NCBI GenBank assembly: GCA_028280845.1
Contig: JANQKZ010000038.1
Span: 124,001-188,000, forward strand
DNA from: Opitutales bacterium
Lineage (GTDB): Bacteria; Verrucomicrobiota; Verrucomicrobiia; Opitutales; JABSRG01
DNA: 64,000 nt
Direction of reading: 5' to 3'
Shown here: piece by piece, positions 26,549 through 43,676 of the stretch
Position numbering within the stretch: the stretch's first letter is position 1
Layout of the letters: each line of letters starts with the position of its first letter
Translations under genes and position numbers: made by a program
Notes under the pieces: model-generated
Database searches by the model: none
What the model saw: the letters and a program-made list of their open reading frames with translations, nothing else
What the model was told of the DNA's origin: nothing

Positions 26549-28087
26549 ATGCTTGCTTTCGCCTCATCTGCGGCGTTGCAGGGCATCGACGCCAAACTGG
26601 TGCAAGTGGAGGTCAACACAGGGGAATCGGGGGAACCCAAGATGGTCCTGGTCGGACTTCCGGATGCGGCAGTAAAGGAATCCATCAACCGCGTCTCCAG
26701 TGCCCTGGCCAACTCCGGTTTTCAACTCCATCGGACGCATACCACGGTAAATCTGGCCCCGGGCGACCTTCGCAAAGAGGGCCCCATTTTTGACCTTCCC
26801 ATCGCCCTTGCCTTCCTCGCAGCCTCATCCCAACAAGACCTGCCCCACTTGAAGGATTTTCTCGTGGCCGGAGAATTGAGCCTCTCGGGCAAGGTCCGAC
26901 CCGTCCGGGGAGCGCTCTCCATGGCCAGGCTCGCCGCCCAACAGGGCTTGGAAGGCATTCTGCTCCCGCCTGAATCAGCCGAGGAGGCGGCCCTCGTGGA
27001 GAACTGCCGGGTATATCCCGTCGAATCCCTATCCCATGCGGCAGGATTTCTTTCCGGCAAGGTGGAAATCCCGCCCCTTGCGCCAGAGTCCAGTGCATTC
27101 ACTCAGACTCCCAGTTCGGATTTCGCCACCGACTTTGCCGACATAAAGGGGCAACAGGCCCTTCGGCGGGCGGTGGAGATCGCCGTCGCCGGCGGGCACA
27201 ATCTCCTCATGATCGGCCCGCCAGGATCCGGAAAAAGCATGATTGCGAAGCGAATCCCCACCATCATGCCGGAGCCGACCCGGGAGGAGTTCCTCGAAAT
27301 CCTCAGCATTCATTCCGCCGCTGGCATAACTATCGAGGAATCCGAGCGCGCCTTTCAACGCCCCTTTCGGTCCCCCCACCACACCATCAGCGATGTCGGC
27401 TTGCTGGGAGGTGGGACTATTCCCGGTCCCGGTGAAATCTCCCTCGCCCACAATGGGGTGCTGTTTCTTGATGAACTCCCCGAGTTTCGTCGCTCCACCC
27501 TCGAGGTCCTCCGCCAACCCATGGAGGATGCTCAGGTCACCATTTCAAGAAGTGCCGGAAAGATCACCCTGCCCTGTTCCTTCATGCTGATCGCCGCCAT
27601 GAACCCCACCCCGGGTGGATTCGGTCTGAACGACGACCGCAGCCGCCAGAATACCCCTGCGCAAATCCAGCGATACCGGAGCAAGATCAGCGGTCCGCTC
27701 CTCGATCGCGTCGACATTCACATCGAGGCGCCCGCCCTCAGCATCAATGAACTCAGGCAGGCCCAACCGGGTGAATCCTCCGCTTCCATTCGGTCGCGCG
27801 TGGTAGCAGCCCGCGCCCTTCAGCTCGATCGCTTTCGATCCACGTCCATCCTCTGCAATGCGCGCATGGGTCATGCGGCGATCCGGAAATACTGTGCCAT
27901 CCAGCAGTCCCTGGGAGACCTGCTCGAGCACGCCATGAAGGAATTGGAACTATCCGCCCGGGCCTATGACCGGATCCTCAAAGTGGCACGAACCATCGCC
28001 GACCTGGCGGAGGCCCGAGAGATCGAAGCCCCCCACCTGTTGGAGGCGATTCAATATCGATCTTTAGACCGCAAGGTGTTTTATTAA
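26549..28087 (+). CDS. comM: YifB/ComM family AAA+ ATPase (Mg chelatase-like)
   Basis: A 512-residue protein of the ComM family, a hexameric helicase that promotes branch migration during integration of DNA in natural transformation. The N-terminal Lon-S5-like domain covers 1-180 ([29 protein letters not shown]), the AAA+ core has Walker [10 protein letters not shown], Walker [13 protein letters not shown], and [21 protein letters not shown] sensor region. The C-terminal Mg_chelatase_C domain ends with [18 protein letters not shown]. It is complete. It is followed 19 bases later by an unrelated SRPBCC gene. Confidence 0.95.
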
Positions 28088-36728: not shown

Positions 36729-36761
36729 CAATCATGGCAACGGTCGCTATCTCCATGATTG
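36729..36761. promoter_or_regulatory. Inverted repeat upstream of the sigma-factor gene
   Basis: A perfect 9-bp inverted repeat, CAATCATGG (36729-36737) and CCATGATTG (36753-36761), with a 15-base spacer. It ends 33 bases before the sigma-factor start and could be an operator, or a hairpin in the leader. Confidence 0.4.
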
Positions 36762-36794
36762 CATTTTAGGCGACAAGCCACACAACTGTTCTCC

Positions 36795-37478
36795 ATGTCA
36801 CTGTCGAAGGAAGATGATGTAAGGTGGGCGCAAGCCTGTCTGGAGGGCAATACCGAAGCGGTCGAGGCCTTTCAGGAAACATTTTCTCCCAATTTAGTCG
36901 GATACCTCATCACCAAGGGAGCCCTCCCATCCGACGCCGAAGACATCGTAGCCGACCTCATTAAGGAGTGCCTCTACGGTAAAGAAGGCCGTGAACCCAA
37001 ACTGATAAATTATCAGCCCGTCGGCCGTCTGGAAGCCTGGTTGAACACCTGCGCCTACAATAAATTTCGAGATTTTATTCGCAGGAAAAACCGTGAAATT
37101 CCACTGCAACCTCAACCCCTGGAAAACGAAGAAACCACAGGCATTCAATTAGACCATGTTCAACATACTGAACCGGATGATCCTGCGACCGATGAAACGG
37201 TGGAGCATCTGAGAGTCGCTCTCCAGACAGCCCTGGAACGCATCGACGAAGAGGCGCTTCTTCTCCTTCGCCTCGTTTTCATTCACGGAGTATCGCAGCG
37301 TTCCCTTTCTCGTGTCTGGCAATGCCACGAAGCCACCATTAGCCGGAAAATCTCCGCGGGCATGCAAGCCCTTCGAGAGCATACGTTAACCTACCTGAAC
37401 AATGTAGAGACGAATTTCAGTTTTTCGTGGGAAGATTGTATCAGGCTATGTAGTAAACACCAACAGCTCTTCCTTTAG
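36795..37478 (+). CDS. ECF-like RNA polymerase sigma factor
   Basis: A 227-residue sigma-70 family protein lacking regions 1 and 3. Region 2 is residues 10-95 (AVEAFQETFSPNLVGYLI to AWLNTCAYNKFRDFIRRKNRE). Region 4 is residues 140-205 (ALERIDEEALLLLRLVFIHGVSQRSLSRVWQCHEATISRKI), a recognisable helix-turn-helix. The C-terminal 25 residues (ETNFSFSWEDCIRLC) are extra. The start at 36795 gives a normal region 2. Fifteen bases downstream lies a small acidic gene that may encode its regulator. Its target promoters are not known. Confidence 0.8.
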   Translation: MSLSKEDDVRWAQACLEGNTEAVEAFQETFSPNLVGYLITKGALPSDAEDIVADLIKECLYGKEGREPKLINYQPVGRLEAWLNTCAYNKFRDFIRRKNREIPLQPQPLENEETTGIQLDHVQHTEPDDPATDETVEHLRVALQTALERIDEEALLLLRLVFIHGVSQRSLSRVWQCHEATISRKISAGMQALREHTLTYLNNVETNFSFSWEDCIRLCSKHQQLFL

Positions 37479-37493
37479 GCCCCCTTCACTGCT

Positions 37494-37724
37494 ATGGACG
37501 ACCCTCAGGATTTCCAAACTATCCTTTCCTTCTTAGGGGAGGCCCATGATGTCACCGGACAAAGCCACTCTGCCCCCCCGGAGCCCTACTTGCAACAACT
37601 CAAACAACTCGTTCAGGGCGGTCTAAGTGAAGAAGAGCGAACTTCCCTCTTCCGGTTTCTTAAAGCTAACCCACAGTGGGTAGGTTTGCTCGCGGAAGAA
37701 ATTCGAGCCCTCCCCGAGGATTAG
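37494..37724 (+). CDS. Small acidic protein following the sigma factor
   Basis: A 76-residue protein I do not recognise. It is acidic and helical (PYLQQLKQLVQGGLSEEERTSLFRFLKANPQWVGLLAEEIRALPED) with no membrane segment or zinc motif. The 'SEEER..l..fL..NP.w...la..i' pattern resembles the cytoplasmic part of some anti-sigma factors. Starting 15 bases after the sigma gene, it is probably co-transcribed and may be its partner; that is inference. It ends 2 bases before the convergent TrkA-N/RyR gene. Confidence 0.6.
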   Translation: MDDPQDFQTILSFLGEAHDVTGQSHSAPPEPYLQQLKQLVQGGLSEEERTSLFRFLKANPQWVGLLAEEIRALPED

Positions 37725-37726
37725 TC

Positions 37727-39616
37727 TCACCCCTTTTGGCCCACAGCCCGGAGGTAGTTCGGGATCTCGAGCAACACCCGGATATCCTTATCAATATCCA
37801 CAGTATCCAAGGCCTTAAATCCTTCGAAAACCAAAGGTACCGGTCCATCCCAATTCCACGGAACCAGCTTGTCGTGTAGCTTTCGTTTATTGTCACGTTG
37901 GGGCCCCGGTAACCATCCATCCAGTAGCTTGTCCGCCATCCACCGGTCGTGCTCACTCTTTGCTAAGGGAATTAAGGTTTCGTTCTCTATCTGTGCCTTA
38001 AGCTTTTCTTCCACATGGTTTGCGAGGCCTGCAAGGTCCATATTTGACTTGGAGCTCAATTCAACGCCCAACCAGGCTAATTTGAACCATAAGTGATCCG
38101 CCGCCGCCCGGTTGGTGTCGCGAAACGGTTCTCCAAGATGTTCCCACGGGCGAAGTGCAGGAGTATCCGTAACTCCATCCAGATTGGACAAATACGTCTC
38201 ATGCAAGGTGCGAGCCATTAAATCGATCTCTGGCTGAACCAGGGCGTCCCACCGCCCCTGCTCTTCAGCCATACCAAAGGGGATCATTGCGGAATCCCGG
38301 GCCTCGCGCAGTGGGTCCTGTTGAAGAATCAATTCATCCAGGAAATTACCCACCTCTGAGGCCTTCCGATGCAAACGGAAATAGATACGGTTAAACACGG
38401 GGGTTTCGGAATGGTGTAAAAAACTGGCTAGCGAATAATTCTCAATGATCTCGCCCAGGCTGATAATCGCACAATCGTAATCCGCAGCATCCGGTTCCAA
38501 ACGGAGGTAATCATTGTAGAAAACTTCCGCAGATTGGCAACGGAACTCCACCTTGGGAAAGTGCATATCGCGGAACAAGATACGCACTTGGCCTTCCATC
38601 GGCGCCCCGGTTTCCCCATCCAGGTATCGCAAGATTGGAAAGTCATTCAACATGGACTGAATCTGATCCCGATTGGGTTCAACCACTTGAATTTCGAGCG
38701 CCGGGAGGTCAGGAAGATACCATTGGCGCAATATTTGTTCAAGGACCCGGCTTCCCAGCTTACCCAGACCAATAAGAAGCAATCGCTGAGGAGTAGGCTC
38801 ACCGCCTGCCCGTCGCCTGAGGTCGGTCAGGACCTGCCGGACCAGGCTGCGGGCCAACCGGTCATAAGGATCGAAGATCTCCAGGTGAAAGAAATCGCCA
38901 AGAGCCTCAAGCTTGCGATCCGCCTTGATCTGTTGGATTAGAGAGGGTCGTGCGAGTTGCATATACCCGGCAGTTTTTACCGACTCCCCACGGCGGACCG
39001 CGGCCACACCCATCTGAAAAACCAAAATTGATGATAAAACATTTTCCTCATCCTTCTCGTTGAGGAAAAAAACTTCTTTCGCCCGGTTAATTTTTGCTTT
39101 TTCCAAAACACTGCTGTGCAAAGTAGAACCCTGTATCGGGATGAGCCGGGGCTGGCGCAGGATGTCCTTGGGATAAGATGCCAGGGGGTCACCAGCCACC
39201 AGAATAACCCGTTTCTTTCGCTCAAGCAGGTCTCGGACGAGGACCTCAGTGAGCTGTCCCTTCCCTAGAACCACCGAATGATTCCGATAGAATAAGGCGA
39301 TCCGCATCCGGCGAAACAGGTTCTGCACGATCAGACTGAATGCCCCGAGGAGCGTGACAATCGTCACCAGGGGAGCAAGGAAGCGCGCAACTTGTAACTT
39401 CAGACTAGGTTCCCACACTTCGGGAAGCCCCCAGGCCTGCTGCATTGCCGGATCAAAAAAGTCCATGGCAAACAACCGCATGGTCTGATAGACCGTTTCC
39501 GTCAGTCTATGCGAAACCGAGTAAGAGCCTGGTATCAGCTCGTAGTAGCCCCAAAAACCTAGAATCACAGACAGCCCCGCAATCAGAGCTATTAAGACAT
39601 TCAGATTTCGATTCAT
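37727..39616 (-). CDS. TrkA-N/RCK-type membrane protein with a C-terminal RyR domain
   Basis: A 629-residue protein. Two N-terminal membrane segments are near 8-28 (VLIALIAGLSVILGFWGYYEL) and 78-98 (LAPLVTIVTLLGAFSLIV). Two Rossmann domains follow: residues about 112-230 (HSVVLGKGQLTEVLVRDLL) and 275-400 (RLLLIGLGKLGSRVLEQIL). A RyR domain lies at about 553-590 (KSEHDRWMADKLLDGW, LHDKLVPW). TrkA-N domains bind NAD or nucleotides and gate K+ flux; RyR domains occur in predicted nucleotide-sensing conflict proteins. The pore itself is not obvious. It may be co-transcribed with the small gene upstream. Confidence 0.8.
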   Translation of the reverse strand: MNRNLNVLIALIAGLSVILGFWGYYELIPGSYSVSHRLTETVYQTMRLFAMDFFDPAMQQAWGLPEVWEPSLKLQVARFLAPLVTIVTLLGAFSLIVQNLFRRMRIALFYRNHSVVLGKGQLTEVLVRDLLERKKRVILVAGDPLASYPKDILRQPRLIPIQGSTLHSSVLEKAKINRAKEVFFLNEKDEENVLSSILVFQMGVAAVRRGESVKTAGYMQLARPSLIQQIKADRKLEALGDFFHLEIFDPYDRLARSLVRQVLTDLRRRAGGEPTPQRLLLIGLGKLGSRVLEQILRQWYLPDLPALEIQVVEPNRDQIQSMLNDFPILRYLDGETGAPMEGQVRILFRDMHFPKVEFRCQSAEVFYNDYLRLEPDAADYDCAIISLGEIIENYSLASFLHHSETPVFNRIYFRLHRKASEVGNFLDELILQQDPLREARDSAMIPFGMAEEQGRWDALVQPEIDLMARTLHETYLSNLDGVTDTPALRPWEHLGEPFRDTNRAAADHLWFKLAWLGVELSSKSNMDLAGLANHVEEKLKAQIENETLIPLAKSEHDRWMADKLLDGWLPGPQRDNKRKLHDKLVPWNWDGPVPLVFEGFKALDTVDIDKDIRVLLEIPNYLRAVGQKG

Positions 39617-39663: not shown

Positions 39664-39894
39664 TCAAGAACCTTGAGATATGTTTCCAGCCATTTCCGCT
39701 CCACCTTTGGATTCAGTCTCGGTGGTGGCGAGAGGAGGACGAGTCCCCCATGGTTTATTCGTCAACCGGAAGAGTTCCTCCATTTTAGAGAATAGGATTC
39801 CGCCCAGACTGTCATTGCTATTTTCCTCCTCCGCTAACGCCGCTCGAATCAAAGCATCATTGGCCGGTTTCCACGCCGTCAGGTTATGGCTCAT
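39664..39894 (-). CDS. Small hypothetical protein upstream of the TrkA-N/RyR gene
   Basis: A 76-residue frame, no recognised family. It is helical in the middle (DALIRAALAEEENSNDSLGGILFSKMEELFRLTNKPWG). A GAGG lies 13 bases before the ATG. It runs in the same direction as the TrkA-N/RyR gene and ends 47 bases before it. The opposite strand is also open here, so the coding status is uncertain. Confidence 0.4.
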   Translation of the reverse strand: MSHNLTAWKPANDALIRAALAEEENSNDSLGGILFSKMEELFRLTNKPWGTRPPLATTETESKGGAEMAGNISQGS

Positions 39895-41074: not shown

Positions 41075-43327
41075 GTGCCAGGAAGTATCAGTAAATTAAA
41101 CATCGGTGACACGGTTTTTCACCGTTACCGTTTAAAACGCCTGCTGGGTCGAGGTGGCATGGGAGTAGTCTGGCTGGCCCACGACCTCGAACTGGAAAAA
41201 GACATCGCTCTCAAGTTCCTTGCGGAACACCTCACCTATGATACTTCCGCCATCTCAGACCTGAAAAAGGAAACCCGGCGGGGCATGGAGCTCGCCCACC
41301 CCAATATTTTACGGGTCTATGGCTTCTTTACAGAGGACAGCTTCGCCGCCATCGCCATGGAATATGTCGAGGGCAATCCCATTTCTGCCCTTCGGTCGAC
41401 TCGGTCCGACAACAGCTTTGATGTCGAGGAAATCGAGGCGTGGACTGCGCAACTCTGCAGTGCCCTGCATTACGCCCACTTCCAAGCTGAAATCGTTCAC
41501 CGGGACCTCAAGCCGGCCAACTTGATGGTGGATTTAAAGAATCAGCTGAAAATCGCCGATTTCGGGATCGCCAGCAGCCTGAACGACGCCCTTACCCGCT
41601 ATACCGGGGCCACCAACACCAAGGGTACCCTCTCCTACATGAGCCCGCAACAGCTCTTGGGTCAGCGTCCCTATATTTCCCATGATATTTACAGCCTGGG
41701 GGCCACCTTGTATGACCTGTTGACCGGGAAGCCGCCGTTTTACTCAGGGGACATCAGCCTGCAGATCAGAGAAGTCGCCCCTCCGAGCATGACCGAGCGG
41801 CGTAATGAGCTCTCCCTCGAAAATCACCGGCCGATCCCACCACATTGGGAGGCAACCATCATGGCCTGCCTGGAAAAAGAGGCCTCGCTCCGTCCAAGAT
41901 CTACGGAGGAAGTTGCGGCCCAACTGAACTTACCCACCGGTGGGATTAGCTTTACGGGGTCGCTATCCGTCCCTCCAATCCCCACGATGGGGACTATTCC
42001 GCCTGCCCCGGTCTCCACAACCACGGCGGAAACCCAGGTGTATACCCCCCCGCCCACTTCGAATCCCCCGCCTTCAGATTCTACCCTGCCCGTAGGTTCG
42101 GCCTCCACTCAGCCCGAAGCTACGACCCAGCCTACTGCCCCCATCGTTCTAGAATCTGGCAAATCCAACTGGATCCTCGGACTGGTGATTTCCCTGGCCC
42201 TCGTTTCCGTCCTCGTTGGCGGTGGAGTCGCGTTCTATGCCTTGAACCTGGCAAAACAGAATCAAAGCGGATCCCTGCCTGCCAACGATGCCTTGCAGGC
42301 CTCGGAGTCCCCCGAAGCCCCAGGCGACCGCCCTTCCGATGATCCCCGGATCTTATCCGCCGAGGAGCGGGAACGTCGCCAGGAATTTGACAGTGGTGAA
42401 CTGAATAGAATGCCCCCACCCCGCCAGCGAAGCTCAAGTGATCAAGCCGATTCAAGAAGCCGCCCCAACATGGGCCCGGGAAGCGGACTCGGTATGTCCA
42501 GATCTGCCCAGACACCTGGCAAACCACCCCCGCGTGGAGAAAACCCCGGGCCGGAGCCCCTTCCTGAGTTCTATAATCGGCCCGTTGAGAAACACCCCTT
42601 TATTATTCATGATACCGGTATCGAATTGATCTGGATCCCCCCGGGCAGATGGATTCACGGCGCTCCTCCTTTCGAGAACAGGGCTTTCGAGAATGAGCAC
42701 CCAGCCACCTGGATCACCCACAATCAGGGCTTCTGGATCGGCCAGCGCGAAATTACCCAACGCCAGTTCCAGCTCATTATGGACATGAACCCGAGCCTTT
42801 ATCCTCAGGGGCCAACTTATCCCATTGAGAATATCTCATGGCATGACGCTATGGAGTTTTGTCGTCGAATTACCCAAACGGAGCAGGCGGCCGGCCGACT
42901 CCCGGAGGGCTACGTCTATTCCCTCCCCACCGAGTTCCAATGGGAATACGCCGCTGCCTCCGGATACCAAGGTAAGCACGGCAGCATTTCCAACTACGCC
43001 AGCGCCGCCTGGTCTGCTAACAATTTACTGGATGCTCCCCGTGCAGTGGGAGAAAAGGAACCGACCGCCTGGAACCTCTATGATGTCTATGGAAACGTGG
43101 CCGAGTGGACCTTTTCCTATTATACCGACACCCTCCCCGGCGGAAGAACGGAGGACTACATTGGCCCCGCCGGTGGAACGCTCAAAGTGGTCAAGGGAGG
43201 TTCTTTTCGCGATGACAAGTGGAATAGCCGGGCATCCGTTAGAGTGCCCTACAAACCAACGGAGATGGCAGGAACCGTCGGCTTTCGTATTGCACTTATT
43301 CCGCGATCGGAACAACATAACTACTGA
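41075..43327 (+). CDS. Transmembrane Ser/Thr protein kinase with periplasmic SUMF1-type domain
   Basis: A 750-residue receptor-like kinase starting at GTG. The kinase domain covers residues 18-285: glycine loop GRGGMG (25-30), K47, HRDLKPAN (142-149), DFG (162-164), SYMSPQQ and DIYSLG. A proline- and threonine-rich linker follows, a membrane helix at 366-390, a second disordered linker and then a SUMF1/formylglycine-like domain at about 515-745 (ELIWIPPGRWIHGAP, LPTEFQWEYAAASGY, VVKGGSFRD). The two cysteines needed for formylglycine synthesis are absent, so the domain is more likely a binding module. An FHA gene follows at 32 bases. Confidence 0.92.
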   Translation: MPGSISKLNIGDTVFHRYRLKRLLGRGGMGVVWLAHDLELEKDIALKFLAEHLTYDTSAISDLKKETRRGMELAHPNILRVYGFFTEDSFAAIAMEYVEGNPISALRSTRSDNSFDVEEIEAWTAQLCSALHYAHFQAEIVHRDLKPANLMVDLKNQLKIADFGIASSLNDALTRYTGATNTKGTLSYMSPQQLLGQRPYISHDIYSLGATLYDLLTGKPPFYSGDISLQIREVAPPSMTERRNELSLENHRPIPPHWEATIMACLEKEASLRPRSTEEVAAQLNLPTGGISFTGSLSVPPIPTMGTIPPAPVSTTTAETQVYTPPPTSNPPPSDSTLPVGSASTQPEATTQPTAPIVLESGKSNWILGLVISLALVSVLVGGGVAFYALNLAKQNQSGSLPANDALQASESPEAPGDRPSDDPRILSAEERERRQEFDSGELNRMPPPRQRSSSDQADSRSRPNMGPGSGLGMSRSAQTPGKPPPRGENPGPEPLPEFYNRPVEKHPFIIHDTGIELIWIPPGRWIHGAPPFENRAFENEHPATWITHNQGFWIGQREITQRQFQLIMDMNPSLYPQGPTYPIENISWHDAMEFCRRITQTEQAAGRLPEGYVYSLPTEFQWEYAAASGYQGKHGSISNYASAAWSANNLLDAPRAVGEKEPTAWNLYDVYGNVAEWTFSYYTDTLPGGRTEDYIGPAGGTLKVVKGGSFRDDKWNSRASVRVPYKPTEMAGTVGFRIALIPRSEQHNY

Positions 43328-43358
43328 CTCCAAAACAACGTATTTCTCCTAATCTACC

Positions 43359-43676
43359 ATGGATTCCGATTCTACTACTATCGAACCAGGTCTGAAAATT
43401 ACCGTGGAAGGCCTCACTTATATCGCCCACGACGGAGACGTCATCGGCCGCAAAGGAAATATCGCGAAGCATTACTTTGAGGAGATTCCCACGGTGTCCC
43501 GGGTCCATGTTCGGATCTCAAAGAAAGAGGCTCGCTGGTATGTAACCGTGCCGGCTGCGGTAAATAACAACACCACCCTCGATGGTGTGGAAATCCCTCG
43601 CGATGAACCCCAACTGGTTTCCGGACCACGCATTCTCAAACTGGCCAGCGACTGTGTCGTTCATTTAGACGTGTAA
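43359..43676 (+). CDS. FHA domain protein
   Basis: A 105-residue protein consisting of one forkhead-associated domain, which binds phosphothreonine peptides. The conserved features are GDVIGRKGNIAKHYF (the R of the GR motif), TVSRVHVRIS with the S and H of the SRxH-type motif, and NNTTLDGVEI for the NGT-type strand. It lies 31 bases after the kinase gene and is followed by a terminator. It is the natural reader of that kinase's phosphorylated sites; that link is inference from position and domains. Confidence 0.88.
   Translation: MDSDSTTIEPGLKITVEGLTYIAHDGDVIGRKGNIAKHYFEEIPTVSRVHVRISKKEARWYVTVPAAVNNNTTLDGVEIPRDEPQLVSGPRILKLASDCVVHLDV

What the first reader, a model, noticed from the sequence alone, without database searches (positions are those of the whole stretch)
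37727..39616. TrkA-N/RyR fusion membrane protein
Two membrane segments, two NAD-binding type Rossmann domains and a C-terminal RyR domain in one protein. RyR and TrkA-N modules have been noted together in predicted nucleotide-centred conflict or signalling systems, but the physiological role in bacteria is unknown. Adjacent genes (ECF sigma, small acidic protein and a 76-residue frame) could belong to the same system.
Basis: partly seen in the sequence, partly recalled or inferred. Interest (0 to 1): 0.6.

Follow-up and report, generated by a model that had tools for sequence, protein, structure and literature searches.

The report
Bacterial RyR-domain channel-like membrane protein
A bacterial membrane protein joins a potassium-channel-like pore, stripped of its potassium filter, to a ryanodine-receptor sensor domain that keeps the residues known to hold ADP-ribose-type immune signals; it looks like a signal-gated membrane effector whose relatives usually sit beside immune genes, although this copy stands alone.

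Summary
The 629-aa ORF (37727-39616, minus strand) has two membrane helices, two tandem RCK-type Rossmann domains and a C-terminal RyR domain above Pfam's cut-off. It belongs to a sparse, highly divergent family found in Verrucomicrobiota, Planctomycetota, Chloroflexota, Actinomycetota and Sinorhizobium plasmids.

New here:
(1) The membrane part is homologous to 2TM-RCK K+ channels, but the TVGYG filter is gone. An acidic residue is usual in its place.
(2) The C-terminus is a tandem RyR repeat, like the R12 module of animal RyR.
(3) The residues by which the phage RyR protein RyDEP holds cyclic ADP-ribose (H, W, H, D) are all present: H556, W559, H581, D611.
(4) In 12 of 17 family loci a TIR, STAND/DUF4062, TPR or AAA-RyR gene lies within three genes.

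The window copy has no such partner. The neighbouring sigma factor and 76-aa gene form a pair that persists without the RyR gene in a same-family genome, so they are probably unrelated to it.

Best reading: a channel-like membrane effector gated by an ADPR-type nucleotide, probably for defence.

The parts
37727..39616 (-). TM-RCK-RCK-RyR-RyR protein, 629 aa
   Evidence: ORF; Pfam TrkA_N and RyR above cut-off; full-length family alignment A4
39536..39604 (-). TM1 (about aa 5-27)
   Evidence: hydropathy; profile alignment to 2TM-RCK channels
39449..39499 (-). pore-helix equivalent and filter position (aa 40-56, containing TVYQTMRLFAMD); K+ filter TVGYG absent
   Evidence: hhalign with 2TM-RCK K+ channels of the same order, prob 99.4; column table
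39311..39403 (-). TM2 (about aa 72-102), begins with the family motif LQxARFLAP (R78 invariant)
   Evidence: hydropathy and alignment
38831..39289 (-). first Rossmann/RCK N-lobe (aa 110-262)
   Evidence: Pfam TrkA_N; hhalign E 1.1e-23 to channel RCK domains
38252..38791 (-). second Rossmann/RCK N-lobe (aa 276-455), GLGKLG at aa 283-288
   Evidence: hhalign to the first Rossmann E 1.2e-9 and to channel RCK E 2.4e-6; not called by Pfam in this protein
38063..38233 (-). degenerate RyR repeat 1 (aa 462-518), family motif LHExY...PWxxL...NRxxADHxxxKLxxLG
   Evidence: hhalign R1 vs R2 E 8e-9, score 46 against at most 12.6 in 40 column shuffles; Pfam RyR E 4e-4 and 1e-3 on the same repeat of L077 and L081
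37739..37984 (-). RyR repeat 2 (aa 545-626) with H556, W559, K563, R574, H581, D611
   Evidence: Pfam RyR; residue table; ligand residues of RyDEP and RyR R12 from PMC13232231 and PMC12627627
39664..39894 (-). 76-aa frame upstream on the same strand, 47 bp before the RyR gene; uncertain gene, not counted as part of the system
   Evidence: ORF only; no Pfam match; no relative in any locus
36759..37724 (+). ECF-type sigma factor and a 76-aa partner, convergent; judged NOT part of the RyR system
   Evidence: pair conserved without RyR in same-family genome G001; NCBIfam sigma70-ECF 53.2 bits

Best explanation
The protein is a membrane-anchored, ligand-gated effector. Two transmembrane helices with a pore-helix-like segment derive from the 2TM-RCK K+ channel fold, but the K+ filter is lost. 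Two tandem RCK-type Rossmann domains would form a gating ring (inferred from MthK, GsuK and CASTOR). A tandem RyR module at the C-terminus binds an adenine/ADP-ribose-type nucleotide; the residues are shown here, the binding is inferred. In family loci with partners, a TIR or STAND protein senses an attack (inferred), a nucleotide signal is made or altered, the RyR module binds it, and the membrane part opens a non-K+-selective pore or otherwise damages the membrane, stopping growth or killing the cell (inferred). In this genome the gene stands alone. It would have to respond to a signal made elsewhere, such as by the single unlinked TIR gene, or to ordinary ADPR/NAD metabolites.
For: Pore homology without the K+ filter: hhalign probability 99.4 to 2TM-RCK channels that carry GYGE at that position, while the family has mostly FxxExG there. 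Two RCK-like domains. Tandem RyR repeats with a shuffle control. H556, W559, H581 and D611 match the RyDEP ligand residues H75, W78, H100 and D117 (spacings 3 and 22 exact; the third, 17, is lengthened by a clade-specific insert); K563 and R574 match the phosphate contacts of RyR R12. TIR, STAND/DUF4062, TPR or AAA-RyR genes within three genes in 12 of 17 loci, against one weak AAA hit among 43 neighbours of eight ordinary 2TM-RCK channels. Sparse distribution and extreme divergence. Precedent: TM-macro ThsA is a two-helix membrane effector that binds ADPR-type nucleotides (PMC11204291).
Against: The window copy has no TIR, STAND or AAA-RyR neighbour, and no PADLOC model matches it. The filter-position acid is D in the query, S in its nearest relative and absent in several others. 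An invariant Arg at the start of TM2 is unusual for a cation pore. The ligand histidine is Ser or Asn in the AAA-RyR-linked clade and neighbours, so the family may not share one ligand. No activity of any TM-RCK-RyR protein has been measured in the papers held.
Confidence: 0.45

Rival explanations
1. Housekeeping ion channel or transport regulator: an RCK-gated channel in which the RyR module senses ADP/ATP or NAD(H) energy state and adjusts ion flux, with no role in conflict.
For: Homology to 2TM-RCK channels and TrkA. Animal RyR R12 binds ATP/ADP (PMC12627627). The window copy sits among housekeeping genes (ftsH, tilS, yqeY) with ordinary GC3. L037 lies next to a Na+/H+ exchanger-TrkA_N gene.
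Against: K+ filter absent; very sparse distribution (8 of 373 genomes of the order); partners elsewhere are TIR/STAND/DUF4062/AAA-RyR; divergence far above neighbouring genes (28% against 64% for ComM between the window and L034).
Confidence: 0.25
2. Signal-degrading or signal-sequestering enzyme on the membrane: the RyR module hydrolyses or soaks up cADPR, as phage RyDEP does, to switch off TIR signalling; the membrane part only anchors it.
For: The catalytic dyad equivalents H556 and D611 are both present; H is in 16 of 16 family members and D in 14 of 16. RyDEP is a glycosidase or sponge (PMC13232231).
Against: Conserved pore-helix and filter-region motif, RCK tandem and TM2 motif suggest gating rather than anchoring; the other tested phage homologues bind or do nothing but do not cleave; no reason for an RCK ring in an enzyme.
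Confidence: 0.13
3. The RyR gene, the convergent sigma factor and the small genes form one stress or conflict system.
For: Gene ends are 2 bp apart (37724/37727); the sigma factor is of ECF type.
Against: Convergent orientation; the sigma-76aa pair is kept in G001 without RyR; no sigma gene was seen beside RyR homologues among the neighbours examined.
Confidence: 0.05
4. A decayed or orphan remnant of a conflict island with no present function.
For: No partner gene; long branch (1.54).
Against: Intact 629-codon frame with all motif residues kept, including ligand residues.
Confidence: 0.12

Closest known systems
2TM-RCK K+ channels (MthK, GsuK; PF02254)
   Same: TM1, pore-helix segment, TM2, RCK N-lobe in the same order; hhalign 99.4%, MthK E 2.6e-13 and GsuK-type E 1e-17 by profile
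   Different: TVGYG/GYGE filter absent; no RCK C-lobe called by Pfam; tandem RyR module added
CASTOR/POLLUX/DMI1 plant nuclear channels
   Same: Two-TM pore without TVGYG plus two tandem RCK domains (PMC6697748)
   Different: No RyR module described in CASTOR; no direct sequence match was tested; CASTOR is a shown Ca2+ channel, this protein is not
Ryanodine receptor R12 (Repeat12) module and bacterial stand-alone RyR proteins (3nrt, 6uag)
   Same: Tandem RyR repeats; conserved W, K/R and R contacts of the adenine nucleotide (PMC12627627); profile E 1e-34
   Different: First repeat lacks the GW-YG-RD loop; sits on an RCK channel rather than the RyR scaffold
Phage RyDEP (RyR-domain cADPR glycosidase/sponge)
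   Same: H, W, H, D ligand residues (PMC13232231)
   Different: RyDEP is a soluble phage homodimer; this is a chromosomal membrane protein
Thoeris TM-macro ThsA effectors
   Same: Two TM helices fused to an ADPR-type sensor, TIR partner (PMC11204291); a 'works like' comparison
   Different: Macro domain instead of RyR and no RCK domains; here TIR is adjacent only in some relatives

Membership tests
RyR domain (PF02026) | profile score above the curated cut-off | tested here: met
   29.1 bits against 27.4; family profile E 1e-34 to RyR structures
R12-like tandem RyR module | two RyR repeats in tandem | tested here: met
   R1 vs R2 E 8e-9, score 46 against at most 12.6 in shuffles; R1 matches Pfam RyR in L077 and L081, below cut-off
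cADPR/adenine-nucleotide-binding RyR module (RyDEP, RyR3 R12) | H, W, H, D ligand residues and K/R + R phosphate contacts | tested here: met
   H556, W559, H581, D611, K563, R574; a sequence test only
cADPR/adenine-nucleotide-binding RyR module (RyDEP, RyR3 R12) | measured ligand binding or cleavage | not testable with these tools
   needs protein
RCK-gated K+ channel | 2TM pore plus RCK N-lobe | tested here: met
RCK-gated K+ channel | K+ selectivity filter TxGYG | tested here: not met
   absent in the query and all 15 relatives
CASTOR/POLLUX channels | two complete RCK domains with C-lobes | tested here: inconclusive
   two Rossmann N-lobes found; C-lobes not identifiable by sequence, no structure available
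Thoeris defence system | TIR (ThsB) gene beside a ThsA effector | tested here: not met
   no TIR gene near the window copy; one unlinked TIR gene in the genome; L034 does have an adjacent TIR gene
Known anti-phage system (PADLOC) | match to a curated model | tested here: not met
   no match for this protein or three neighbours

The most novel reading that the evidence does not exclude
A bacterial ion channel gated by TIR-made cyclic ADP-ribose through a ryanodine-receptor-type module: a cation-conducting, non-K+ pore (acidic filter FxxExG in most members) that kills or arrests infected cells. It would be a prokaryotic counterpart of the long-debated cADPR control of ryanodine receptors.
Probability: 0.17. 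Interest if true: 0.85.

Novelty: new variant of a known kind. Interest (0 to 1): 0.55.

Why it matters
RyR domains were shown only in 2026 (preprint PMC13232231) to be cADPR-handling modules in phages. If host bacteria carry channels with the same module next to TIR and STAND genes, that gives a candidate target for the signal that phage RyDEP proteins destroy. It also gives a simple system for asking whether RyR modules translate cADPR into ion flux, an old open question for animal ryanodine receptors.

Tried and rejected
Rejected: that the sigma factor and small ORFs are partners, and that the 76-aa frame at 39664 is a conserved partner. Nothing found: viral contigs (no relative); phages for the whole protein (none); plasmids (two Sinorhizobium megaplasmids only); PADLOC. 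The first alignment was too divergent for a contig scan; a narrower one gave six loci. Burroughs et al. 2015 (10.1093/nar/gkv1267) and the TIR-systems preprint 10.64898/2025.12.03.692087 are not held, so whether either already describes this architecture could not be checked. I looked for phage DyoEdafos gp78 among phage records to align it directly; it was not among the 60 best of 269 listed, so the residue mapping to RyDEP rests on motif spacing.

Full report
1. The observation. The ORF at 37727-39616 (minus strand, 629 aa) is intact. Pfam gives TrkA_N at aa 115-199 and RyR at aa 550-588, both above cut-off, the RyR only just (29.1 against 27.4 bits). With a profile of 16 full-length members (A4) the RyR part matches ryanodine-receptor structures at E 1e-34. 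The Rossmann part matches TrkA/GsuK-type chains at 1e-17 to 1e-19, and the stretch covering TM1, pore, TM2 and RCK matches MthK at 2.6e-13. Two hydrophobic segments stand at the N-terminus.

2. The membrane part. Profile-profile comparison with ordinary 2TM-RCK K+ channels of the same order aligns TM1, the pore helix, TM2 and the RCK domain (probability 99.4). Those channels carry GYGE in the filter. The family keeps the pore-helix motif LYxxLQLF, but the filter position reads FxxExG in most members: Glu in 11 of 16, Asp in the query, Ser in its nearest relative. TM2 begins with the motif LQxARFLAP, and its Arg is invariant. So the K+-channel signature was tested and is not met. What, if anything, passes is unknown.

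3. The cytosolic part. The second Rossmann domain, not called by Pfam, aligns to the first (E 1.2e-9) and to channel RCK domains (E 2.4e-6). The region before the Pfam RyR hit is a second, degenerate RyR repeat. Repeat 1 against repeat 2 gives E 8e-9 and score 46, against at most 12.6 in 40 column shuffles and 14.2 for the reversed profile. Isolated repeat 1 of L077 and L081 matches Pfam RyR at E 4e-4 and 1e-3 (below cut-off), though repeat 1 of the query itself does not. The module therefore resembles R12 of animal RyR.

4. The ligand residues. Crystal structures show RyR R12 stacking adenine on Trp881 with phosphate contacts four and fifteen residues on (PMC12627627). Phage RyDEP holds cADPR with H75, W78, H100 and D117 (PMC13232231). 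By motif spacing these are H556, W559, H581 and D611 in the query, with K563 and R574 as phosphate contacts; all are present. The last spacing (17) is lengthened by a clade-specific insert, and the conserved Asp was placed by alignment. In the AAA-RyR-linked clade and neighbours His581 is Ser or Asn, and Trp559 is Phe in three proteins, so ligands may differ among clades.

5. The neighbourhood. In 12 of 17 family loci a conflict-type gene lies within three genes: TIR (L034); TIR-DUF4062 and nSTAND1 directly upstream (L038, L040); TIR-NPHP3-TPR (L041); DUF4062/NACHT/TPR (L081); DUF4062-AAA/NB-ARC-TPR overlapping the gene by 4 bp (L032/L033); AAA or AAA-RyR (L077, L078, L079, L080); RelA_SpoT-RyR with a weak SLOG match (L035); TPR (L039, the weakest case). 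No such gene was seen for the window, L037, L082, L083 or L087. Among 43 neighbours of eight ordinary 2TM-RCK channels only one weak AAA match was found. The control is small, and its Pfam list was cut at 25 of 80 families.

6. The window copy. Its neighbours are housekeeping genes and the sigma-76aa pair. That pair persists as adjacent genes in G001, the same-family genome, which lacks the RyR gene. Its nearest relative, L034 (Opitutaceae MAG), forms a supported clade with it (99/98) and has a TIR gene ending 5 bp away. The genome holds one other RyR gene (with TPR-S, contig C21) and one unlinked TIR gene.

7. Distribution. Full-length members occur in 8 of 373 genomes of the order, counting the window's own and one fused form, with others in Planctomycetota, Chloroflexota, Actinomycetota and Oligosphaera, and in two of 72,556 plasmids. 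None was found in phages or viral contigs by whole-protein search.

8. Mechanism. Shown by sequence: the domain order, loss of the K+ filter, tandem RyR repeats, ligand residues, and neighbourhood association for the family. Inferred: tetrameric pore, ligand identity, gating, membrane damage, defence role, and that the lone window copy works as its relatives do. A two-helix membrane effector sensing ADPR-type nucleotides has precedent in TM-macro ThsA (PMC11204291).

9. Limits. Two papers likely to bear on priority are not held.

Noticed in passing
G000 contig C21 (L050:3256-5541): The same genome has a second RyR protein (RyR + TPR-S, 761 aa) directly after an ABC-transporter ATPase with a C-terminal cyclic-nucleotide-binding-like domain (read by eye); a lone RyR gene beside a TPR-like protein also occurs in L006.
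   Followed up: partly
window 36759-37724: ECF-type sigma factor followed by a 76-aa gene; the pair is conserved at about 26% identity in a same-family genome (L112), so the small protein may be its dedicated regulator.
   Followed up: partly
window 41075-43676: Ser/Thr kinase fused to an FGE-sulfatase-type domain, followed by a 105-aa protein that reads like an FHA domain (by eye).
   Followed up: no
L083:3265-8424: 1719-aa protein: N-terminal TrkA_N repeats and RyR fused to a 949-aa C-terminus without any Pfam match.
   Followed up: partly
L078:3282-6644, L036:6309-9119, L044:4427-7342, L045:8088-10901: Family of 936-1120 aa AAA-ATPase proteins ending in a RyR domain; such genes lie next to the TM-RCK-RyR gene in several phyla.
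   Followed up: partly
L035:6126-8783: RelA_SpoT domain, weak SLOG (LSDAT) match and RyR in one 885-aa protein, next to a TM-RCK-RyR gene.
   Followed up: no
window 26549-28087 and L034:4604-6142: The ComM-like gene lies about 10 kb from the RyR gene in the window and about 1.2 kb from it in L034, its nearest relative; shared ancestral position or coincidence.
   Followed up: no
G000 contig C46 (L138:5892-8240): The only TIR_2 gene found in the genome (782 aa), with a secondary ThsB_TIR match.
   Followed up: partly
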